Positions 39,344-41,059 of a stretch of 64,000 nucleotides of DNA are shown one piece after another; within the stretch, counting starts at the first letter, position 1, and the number at the start of each line of letters is the position of its first letter. Source of the stretch: a bacterium BMS3Bbin08 (GTDB lineage Bacteria > Nitrospirota > Thermodesulfovibrionia > UBA6902 > BMS3Bbin08). The stretch lies in NCBI GenBank assembly GCA_002897775.1, contig BDTR01000053.1, forward strand, positions 124,001 through 188,000, given 5' to 3'. A program made the position numbers and the translations under genes. The notes below the pieces were generated by a model. That model worked only from the letters and a program-made list of their open reading frames with translations, ran no database searches and was not told where the DNA came from.

Positions 39344-41059
39344 TTGGCAAAGAAAATAGTTGTTGACCCTATTACAAGGATTGAAGGACATCTGAGGATC
39401 GAGGCCAAGGTTGAGAACGGCAAGATCGTTGACGCGTGGAGCTCAAGCACAATGTTCAGAGGGATCGAGCTCATTCTTAAAGGCAGAGACCCCAGAGATG
39501 CCTGGGCATTCACTCAGCGAATATGAGGCGTCTGAACTACGGTTCACGCAACCGCCTCGGTGAGAGCGGTCGAAAATGCTTTAGGAATCACAATCCCTGA
39601 TAACGCAAGGATCATAAGAAATCTTATTACAGGGATCCAGTATGTTCAGGACCATGTAATACACTTCTATCATCTCCATGCGCTTGACTGGGTCGACATA
39701 GTAAGCGCTTTAAGTGCAGATCCGGCCAAGACATCATCTCTAACACAGTCAATATCAGACTGGCCCAAATCAAGCACGGATTATTTCAAGAGTGTCCGGG
39801 ACAAGCTTAAATCCTTTGTTGATAACGGACAGTTGGGTCCTTTTGCCAACGGTTATTGGGGACATCCAGCGTACAAACTTCCGCCTGAAGCAAATCTCAT
39901 GGCTGTAGCCCATTACCTTGAAGCGCTTGACTGGCAGAGAGATGTCATAAAGATACAAGCTCTTCTTGGAGCTAAAAACCCTCACGCGCAGACTTACATT
40001 GTTGGCGGCATGTCAATTCCTGTTGATCCGGACAGCCAGAACGCGCTTAACGCCGGAAGCATTGCTTTTATATCCGGCTTGGCCAAAAAGGCACAGGAGT
40101 TTGTTGACCAGGTCTACATTCCTGATGTTCTTGCGGTTGCTCCTTTCTATTTAGACTGGGCCGGTCACGGTGCGGGCGTCGGCAACTACATGTCCTATGG
40201 TGAATTTCCCGAAGACAATGTCAGCAATACGGAAAAGATGTGGCTTCCCAGCGGCATTATCCTGAATAAGGACCTGTCAAAGGTCCATAAGGTTGACCAG
40301 TCAAAGGTAACTGAGTACGTTACCCATTCCTGGTATGAATATTCTGACGGCGACGGCAAGGCAAAGCATCCGTATGATGGTGAGACTAACTATAAGTACT
40401 CAGGACCAAAACCTCCATACAAATTCCTGGATACTGACAAAAAGTATACATGGCTTAAGGCCCCGCGTTATGACAACAAGGCAATGGAGGTCGGTCCGCT
40501 GTCAAGAATGCTTGTTGCATATGCTTCCGGGCACAAGAGAGTTCAGGAAGCAGTCAATCATGTGCTGAAGACTCTTGGGAACCTGCCGGCAACGGTCCTG
40601 TTCTCAACACTCGGAAGGATTGCCGCACGGGCAATTGAAACACAAATCACTGCTGAAATGATACCTGTCTGGCTGGGTCAGCTCACTGCCAATATGAAAA
40701 AAGGCGACCTTAAGATCCACAGCGGCGAGAAATGGGATCCTTCTGAATGGCCAGCTGAGGCAAAGGGTTACGGATTTCATGAGGCCCCAAGGGGCGCGCT
40801 CGGCCACTGGATCAACATCAAAAACAAAAAGATAGCTAATTATCAGATCGTCGTGCCCGGAACATGGAACGGTTCGCCAAGGGATGCAAAAGACCAGAGA
40901 GGGCCGTATGAGTCCGCCCTTATAGGAACTCCTGTGGCTAACATCGAACAGCCGCTTGAGATACTCAGGACCATTCATTCATTTGACCCCTGCATGGCAT
41001 GTGCCGTTCATGTGGTTGACCCTGATGGAAACGAGGTAATAAGGATAAAGGTAAAATAA
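39344..41059 (+). CDS. hyaB: [NiFe] hydrogenase large subunit with two predicted selenocysteines in the L1 motif
   Basis: 571 residues when two in-frame TGA codons (39524-39526 and 39533-39535) are read as Sec. The TTG start follows GGAGGTG. The first 60 codons read DPITRIEGHLRIE and FRGIELILKGRDP, classic large-subunit sequence. The frame continues RI-TGA-GV-TGA-TTVHATASVRAV, exactly the L1 motif RICGVCTTxHxxxS of the family with both Cys codons replaced by TGA, and then stays open to 41059 in phase. The L2 motif near the C-terminus is ordinary (FDPCMACAVH) and is followed by a 15-residue extension for removal by the maturation protease. Automatic annotation would split this into a 60-residue ORF and a 499-residue ORF. 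The alternative, a pseudogene with two nonsense mutations, is unlikely. Confidence 0.88.
39551..39570 (+). promoter_or_regulatory. Bacterial-type SECIS hairpin in the large-subunit mRNA
   Basis: Eight base pairs: ACCGCCTC (39551-39558) pairs with GAG (39562-39564) and GCGGT (39566-39570), with bulged A39565 and the loop GGT. The loop begins with G and lies 23 bases after the second TGA and 32 after the first. Both fall in the spacing known for bacterial SECIS elements (roughly 16-37 bases), and a GGU-containing loop with a bulge is what SelB recognises in E. coli fdhF. Confidence 0.7.

What the first reader, a model, noticed from the sequence alone, without database searches (positions are those of the whole stretch)
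39344..41059. [NiFe] hydrogenase with two selenocysteines in the N-terminal nickel-binding motif (UxxU)
Seen: the frame reads RI-TGA-GV-TGA-TTVHATAS, with both TGA codons exactly at the two L1 cysteines, and is open on both sides for 571 residues in total. Established: these two cysteines are one terminal and one bridging ligand of the Ni-Fe site; known [NiFeSe] enzymes carry one Sec, in the C-terminal L2 motif. Here L2 keeps both Cys (DPCMACAVH). Inference: the enzyme has two Ni-Se bonds, one of them bridging Ni and Fe, which would alter oxygen tolerance, rates and HypC/HypD binding. I know of no described enzyme of this type.
Basis: partly seen in the sequence, partly recalled or inferred. 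Interest (0 to 1): 0.95.

Follow-up and report, generated by a model that had tools for sequence, protein, structure and literature searches.

The report
Hydrogenase with two predicted selenium ligands
A nickel-iron hydrogenase gene has UGA codons at both of its first two metal-binding cysteine positions, as do its relatives in dozens of bacterial genomes from several phyla, and these codons are predicted to be read as selenocysteine, which would give a hydrogen-splitting enzyme with two selenium ligands at its metal site, one likely bridging nickel and iron.

Summary
In detail: frame 39344-41059 is open except for two TGAs exactly at the L1 cysteines (RI-U-GV-U-TTVH), and L2 keeps both Cys. 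It belongs to a conserved class. In a search of 395 genomes of the phylum, all 71 printed homologues with two TGAs are UxxU and all 26 with one TGA are CxxU; none is UxxC. A DNA-pattern scan of named genomes listed 80 records, of which 72 are L1-UxxU hydrogenases (41 Nitrospirota, 22 Chloroflexota, 4 delta/proteobacterial, 5 unnamed). Decoding as Sec is strongly supported: selA, selB, two selD and a UCA tRNA-Sec; a hairpin that fits the published bacterial SECIS model for both UGAs; codons frozen there in UxxU genes but not in CxxC relatives; at least 8 switches of the UxxU state on a quick tree. The operon is that of a Tat-exported, cytochrome-b-linked group-1 enzyme with its maturation genes. 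Sec in the protein and the Se bonds are inferred; there are no protein data. Nine paper searches on this question showed no description of L1 selenocysteine. I rate it a new variant of [NiFe] hydrogenase, not a member of the L2-Sec [NiFeSe] family.

The parts
38241..39341 (+). small subunit, Tat signal, Fe-S clusters; proximal-cluster motif CAGD instead of CxGC
   Evidence: TIGR00391 466 bits over cut-off, TAT signal model; PDB matches; motif
39344..41059 (+). large (catalytic) subunit, 571 residues with TGA read through
39524..39526 (+). TGA codon 61, first L1 position (terminal Ni ligand by recalled structure)
39533..39535 (+). TGA codon 64, second L1 position (Ni-Fe bridging ligand by recalled structure)
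39551..39570 (+). predicted SECIS hairpin ACCGC(C)TC-GGTGA-GAGCGGT; loop 39559-39563, 32 nt after TGA 61 and 23 nt after TGA 64
   Evidence: codon constraint and pairing; model from PMC13188914 passage
40985..41011 (+). L2 motif DPCMACAVH, both Cys kept
41012..41056 (+). C-terminal tail of 15 residues after the L2 His, expected to be cut off by the endopeptidase
   Evidence: sequence; solved mature chains end at this His; cleavage inferred
41073..41738 (+). b-type cytochrome subunit
   Evidence: TIGR02125 143.6 bits, cut-off 121.5
41839..42330 (+). hydrogenase maturation endopeptidase
   Evidence: TIGR00140 162.5 bits, cut-off 151.8
42522..42767 (+). hypC
   Evidence: TIGR00074 over cut-off
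42760..43110 (+). hypA
   Evidence: TIGR00100 over cut-off
43398..44132 (+). hypB
   Evidence: TIGR00073 over cut-off
44213..45205 (+). hypE
   Evidence: TIGR02124 over cut-off
45309..46349 (+). hypD
   Evidence: TIGR00075 over cut-off
47595..49847 (+). hypF
   Evidence: Pfam HypF domains

Best explanation
The gene encodes a [NiFe] hydrogenase large subunit with UGA codons at both L1 metal-ligand positions that are very likely both decoded as selenocysteine, which would put one terminal and one Ni-Fe-bridging selenolate at the active site. One hairpin behind the codons lies within the published distance limits of both and is predicted to recruit SelB with Sec-tRNA at each UGA in turn (inferred). 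The protein would be matured by the neighbouring Hyp proteins and endopeptidase, exported by Tat with its small subunit, and pass electrons from periplasmic H2 to a membrane cytochrome b (inferred from the operon). The likely gain is a metal site that is fast and recovers quickly from oxidation, by analogy with the known L2-Sec enzymes (untested). Shown: the codons, their conservation, the RNA-level constraint, the sel genes, the repeated Sec/Cys exchange. Inferred: Sec in the protein, the Se bonds, any catalytic effect.
For: Codons and conservation: (71 of 71 two-TGA rows UxxU; 26 of 26 one-TGA rows CxxU). Sec genes in this genome; selB over cut-off in 93 of 101 relatives and 18 of 20 genomes picked from the pattern scan. 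RNA signal: lowest synonymous entropy of 390 gene windows begins at L1; same codon at shared degenerate residues 65.8% there against 32.2% elsewhere in 16 UxxU genes, 36.4% against 36.9% in 9 CxxC genes; full Watson-Crick stem in 78 of 92 distinct UxxU sequences and 0 of 14 CxxC; 39 two-sided compensating cells, shuffles at most 19; loop and spacing fit the published model. Cys relatives up to 94.4% identical and at least 8 switches of the UxxU state on a quick tree. Ligand positions by alignment to solved enzymes.
Against: No protein evidence. Folding energy does not separate UxxU from CxxC genes, and 4 of 14 CxxC sequences complete a stem if G-U pairs are allowed; the number of pair types does not exceed shuffles; part of the complementarity comes from the encoded A-S...R-A residues. 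Three carriers lack Sec genes in their drafts: G001 (82% complete) has selA but no selB over cut-off; G026 (91%) and G091 (99%, only the distant UAVU form) lack both; G103 and G106 are under the selB cut-off. selB is also present in CxxC genomes, so its presence does not discriminate.
Confidence: 0.9

Rival explanations
1. The UGAs are read through but as cysteine (or another amino acid), for example by a tRNA-Sec-like tRNA-Cys, so the enzyme is an ordinary [NiFe] hydrogenase.
For: The genome has a second tRNA-Sec-like gene that is a tRNA-Cys. Some such selC* tRNAs elsewhere have a UCA anticodon (PMC7609411 passage).
Against: Here that tRNA has anticodon GCA and should not read UGA; the gene found with anticodon TCA is a regular tRNA-Sec, and selA, selB and selD are present. 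Cys could be had by TGC, and relatives do switch to it.
Confidence: 0.04
2. Only the second UGA (bridging position) is decoded efficiently as Sec; at the first, translation mostly stops, so full-length protein is rare or made under special conditions.
For: In all 26 one-TGA genes read the second TGA is the one kept; the hairpin lies 23 nt from UGA 64 but 32 nt from UGA 61.
Against: 32 nt is inside the published 16-37 nt range. Stopping at UGA 61 would yield no enzyme, yet TGA is kept there in 71 of 71 two-TGA genes.
Confidence: 0.04
3. Broken gene or sequencing artefact.
For: Protein databases hold the protein only from after the TGAs (P0002, 499 aa). In G032 the N- and C-terminal parts lie far apart on one contig.
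Against: Same two codons at the same place in many genomes at 69-88% protein identity with an otherwise open frame; complete operon.
Confidence: 0.01

Closest known systems
[NiFe] hydrogenase group 1, nearest solved enzyme PDB 3myr (Allochromatium vinosum, species recalled)
   Same: 748 bits over residues 2-556, same L1 and L2 positions, small subunit with Fe-S clusters
   Different: 3myr has Cys at all four ligand positions; here both L1 codons are UGA. Proximal-cluster CxGC is CAGD here
[NiFeSe] hydrogenase (HysAB of Desulfovibrio; VhuU, FrhA of methanogens)
   Same: Sec at the Ni-Fe site, UGA decoding; Cys isozymes in some genomes
   Different: Known Sec is at L2 (UxxC), replacing Cys530; here L2 is Cys and L1 is UxxU. 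HysA model 429 bits against cut-off 780
CxxU Hyb-like hydrogenases of the same phylum (L071-L074, L224-L226, L228-L242), found here
   Same: Sec codon at the second L1 position, L2 Cys, hairpin behind the codon
   Different: About 50-53% identical to P0001; one Sec only; 14 of 22 have a different 8-bp hairpin 18 nt after the UGA. L128 and L223 of this clade are UxxU
Other UxxU selenoproteins (Prx-like, FmdB-like, metal-binding protein)
   Same: Two Sec three residues apart in a bacterial protein (table passages in PMC13188914)
   Different: None of those listed is a hydrogenase; here UxxU replaces a metal-binding CxxC

Membership tests
[NiFe] hydrogenase, group 1 | Large subunit homologous over its full length, Pfam NiFeSe_Hases | tested here: met
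   798 bits, cut-off 25.8; solved enzymes
[NiFe] hydrogenase, group 1 | L1 RxCxxC and L2 DPCxxC with four Cys ligands | tested here: not met
   L2 met; both L1 positions are TGA. It is a ligand variant, not a standard member
[NiFe] hydrogenase, group 1 | Small subunit, maturation endopeptidase, hypA-F | tested here: met
[NiFe] hydrogenase, group 1 | HydDB subgroup | not tested
   HydDB is not on hand
[NiFeSe] hydrogenase (L2-Sec) | Sec at the first L2 position | tested here: not met
   DPCMACAVH; L2 is CxxC in every L1-TGA gene whose L2 was read
[NiFeSe] hydrogenase (L2-Sec) | Curated HysA model over cut-off | tested here: not met
   429.1 bits, cut-off 780; broader NF033181 588.9, cut-off 600
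Bacterial selenoprotein | In-frame UGA where homologues have Cys, in several organisms | tested here: met
Bacterial selenoprotein | SECIS hairpin: 3-9 nt loop, G in its first two positions, 16-37 nt from UGA | tested here: met
   loop GGTGA, 23 and 32 nt (model). Folding energy did not discriminate
Bacterial selenoprotein | selA, selB, selD and tRNA-Sec in the genome | tested here: met
Bacterial selenoprotein | Selenium shown in the protein | not testable with these tools
   needs mass spectrometry or 75Se labelling

The most novel reading that the evidence does not exclude
Nature uses a bridging selenolate in [NiFe] hydrogenases. A widespread class in Nitrospirota, Chloroflexota and delta-like lineages carries Sec at both L1 ligands (two Se on nickel, one shared with iron), and a second, Hyb-like clade mostly carries only the bridging one (CxxU). 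With the known L2-Sec enzymes, three of the four metal-binding cysteines of this enzyme family are then replaced by Sec somewhere in nature.
Probability: 0.88. Interest if true: 0.92.

Novelty: new variant of a known kind. Interest (0 to 1): 0.88.

Why it matters
[NiFeSe] enzymes draw attention because one terminal Se goes with high activity and fast recovery from O2 (PMC7324405 passages). A class with Se at the other terminal and at a bridging position would be a natural experiment on what each ligand does, with Cys sisters up to 94% identical as controls. The proteins are hidden in databases: 96 of the 120 best protein matches listed begin after L1, so such hydrogenases are easily missed or mistyped in environmental surveys. 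The window's own genome also has dsrA, so sulfur respiration on H2 is a plausible setting (inferred).

Tried and rejected
Folding energy as a SECIS test does not separate Sec from Cys genes; codon constraint, Watson-Crick completeness and compensation were used instead. Second-sphere residues that track Sec: no residue did so in more than 5 of 11 sister pairs. Other in-frame-TGA frames of the window: none looked like a selenoprotein, judged by eye, no homology search made. Viral contigs with the pattern: 7 hits, none a hydrogenase. TGA as a general sense codon: 12 of 44 long ORFs end at TGA. NCBIfam NF033181 'NiFeSe_hydrog' as a home: below cut-off for P0001 and 4 more. Structure prediction was not run: sequence matches to solved enzymes already place the ligands. 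Paper searches on this question gave no title, abstract start or opened passage that describes an L1-Sec hydrogenase; most listed papers were not opened. One search was on tRNAs. Opened, passages only: PMC13188914, PMC9312934, PMC1914089, PMC9469722, PMC11291895, PMC7609411, PMC1794560, PMC7324405, PMC12093298, PMC1088965.

Rows dropped: the tree used 128 rows, without duplicates, rows under 480 aa or rows without a readable L2; an earlier try had a pattern error and gave no rows. The compensation count used 56 of 92 distinct UxxU hairpins (those fitting the 6-bp form or with a 5' arm other than ACCGCCTC); the other 36 form a nearly invariant bulged stem. The codon control used 16 of 47 UxxU and 9 of 14 CxxC loci, picked by me for spread and closeness. 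The small-subunit table counts loci; some genomes are in it twice.

Full report
What is there. The + strand frame 39344-41059 encodes a 571-residue [NiFe] hydrogenase large subunit if two in-frame TGAs are read through. They are codons 61 and 64, exactly the two L1 cysteine positions: RI-U-GV-U-TTVHATAS. L2 is DPCMACAVH. In the alignment to solved enzyme 3myr (748 bits) the TGAs fall on the cysteines of RICGVC. Upstream lies a Tat-exported small subunit; downstream a hydrogenase cytochrome b, a maturation endopeptidase, hypC, hypA, hypB, hypE, hypD and hypF. The genome (G000, 94.9% complete) has dsrA over cut-off.

A conserved class. A search of 101 genomes (own plus 100 relatives) and two fetches gave 70 loci: 47 read UGVU, 6 CGVU, 14 CGVC, 1 UAVU (L082, a distant paralogue), and 2 could not be matched. 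A search of 395 genomes of the phylum matched 153 genomes; its printed rows, cut at the end, hold 71 genes with two TGAs and 26 with one. I read the codons of all 97: 71 of 71 are UxxU, 26 of 26 CxxU, 0 UxxC, and their L2 is CxxC. L2 is visible in 55 of the 72, Cys in each. By record title the 72 are 41 Nitrospirota, 22 Chloroflexota, 2 Deltaproteobacteria, 1 Pseudomonadota, 1 mapped to Myxococcota (titled Deltaproteobacteria) and 5 unnamed. In viral contigs the pattern hit 7 stretches, none a hydrogenase.

Decoding machinery. This genome has selB (376.2 bits), selA (621.8 bits), two selD copies over cut-off, each with an in-frame TGA, and a tRNA-Sec with anticodon TCA. selB is over cut-off in 93 of 101 genomes and in 18 of 20 genomes I picked from the pattern scan. 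Carriers without it in their drafts: G001 (82% complete; selA present), G026 (91%; selA absent too), G091 (99%; selA absent too, carries only the UAVU form), and G103, G106. CxxC genomes have selB as well, so its presence is necessary but not telling.

RNA signal. Behind the TGAs lies a hairpin, here ACCGC(C)TC-GGTGA-GAGCGGT at 39551-39570. The published bacterial model asks for a 3-9 nt loop with G in its first two positions, a 4-16 bp upper stem and 16-37 nt from UGA to loop (PMC13188914 passage). The loop is 23 nt from UGA 64 and 32 nt from UGA 61, so one hairpin could serve both. Over 46 UxxU genes the lowest synonymous entropies of 390 windows all begin around L1. In 16 UxxU genes shared degenerate residues use the same codon in 65.8% of comparisons there against 32.2% elsewhere; in 9 CxxC relatives 36.4% against 36.9%. 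A full Watson-Crick stem exists in 78 of 92 distinct UxxU sequences, 1 of 6 CxxU and 0 of 14 CxxC; the low CxxU figure is partly due to another hairpin in the Hyb-like clade (14 of 22 have an 8-bp stem 18 nt after the UGA). In 56 hairpins of the 6-bp form 92.6% of cells pair (shuffles at most 84.2%), with 39 two-sided changes (shuffles at most 19); sliding the partner gives 24-58% paired. Against: folding energies overlap (means -12.3 UxxU, -11.5 CxxC), 4 of 14 CxxC sequences complete a stem if G-U is allowed, and the number of pair types (6) does not exceed shuffles (mean 7.1).

Evolution. On a quick tree of 128 large subunits with the two L1 columns masked, the UxxU label needs 14 changes, at least 8 forced by well supported branches. 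CxxC sisters are as close as 94.4% identical. Both positions mostly switch together; the only partial state seen is CxxU. The tree does not tell gain from loss. G347, G250 and G075 hold a Sec and a Cys isozyme, and G371 has a CxxU and a UxxU gene whose starts are 3.9 kb apart.

Mechanism. By recalled ligand roles (PMC7324405 passages name Cys65, Cys68 and Cys530 as ligands) the first L1 position is a terminal Ni ligand and the second bridges Ni and Fe. If decoded as Sec, the enzyme has two Ni-Se bonds, one Se shared with Fe. That CxxU but not UxxC occurs suggests either that the bridging Se matters most or that UGA 64 is better placed for the hairpin; these data cannot separate the two. No other residue tracked the Sec state in more than 5 of 11 sister pairs, so Sec looks like a plug-in exchange.

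Small subunit. The first proximal-cluster motif, normally CxGC, is CAGD here. Of 106 UxxU loci in which a small subunit was found, 88 have CAGD, CAGN, CCGN or CTGD, 14 have CxGC and 4 were not readable (some genomes twice). The 9 CxGC loci that the output shows are from Chloroflexota; the CxxC locus L060 has CTGD. So it is not strictly tied to Sec.

Known or not. The reviews of 2026 and 2022 list the metal-site subunits of hydrogenases only as UxxC (passages). Nine searches on the question showed no L1-Sec hydrogenase; subscription papers and preprints are not held. 96 of the 120 best database matches begin after L1. Verdict: a real, widespread and apparently undescribed variant of [NiFe] hydrogenase. 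It is expected to work like a selenium hydrogenase but is not a member of the L2-Sec [NiFeSe] family.

Noticed in passing
G000:C32:15830-15922 (L040:1501-1595, minus strand): A second tRNA-Sec-like gene (56.7 bits, cut-off 47) that ARAGORN calls tRNA-Cys with anticodon GCA; by eye it has U73. It lies about 1.3 kb from one of two selD copies. It resembles the selC* tRNA-Cys reported from Nitrospirae (PMC7609411 passage).
   Followed up: partly
38241-39341 and small subunits of relatives: Fourth proximal-cluster ligand position is Asp or Asn instead of Cys in 88 of 106 UxxU loci with a small subunit.
   Followed up: partly
L082 (G091:C20:37628-43355): A distant hydrogenase paralogue with RIUAVUPTAH at L1, DCCIACAVH at L2 and a full hairpin behind the TGAs, in a 99% complete draft in which selA and selB were not found.
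   Followed up: partly
L226 (G371:C22): A CxxU and a UxxU hydrogenase gene lie next to each other on one contig, starts 3.9 kb apart.
   Followed up: no
G032:C1 near 248056 and 668751: N-terminal part (two TGAs) and C-terminal part of the hydrogenase lie about 420 kb apart on one contig: split gene or assembly error.
   Followed up: no
6426-36921, minus strand: A dense run of two-component genes: of ten ORFs scanned in the window six are histidine kinases and one a sigma-54 response regulator, plus a PAS histidine kinase at 34705-36921.
   Followed up: no
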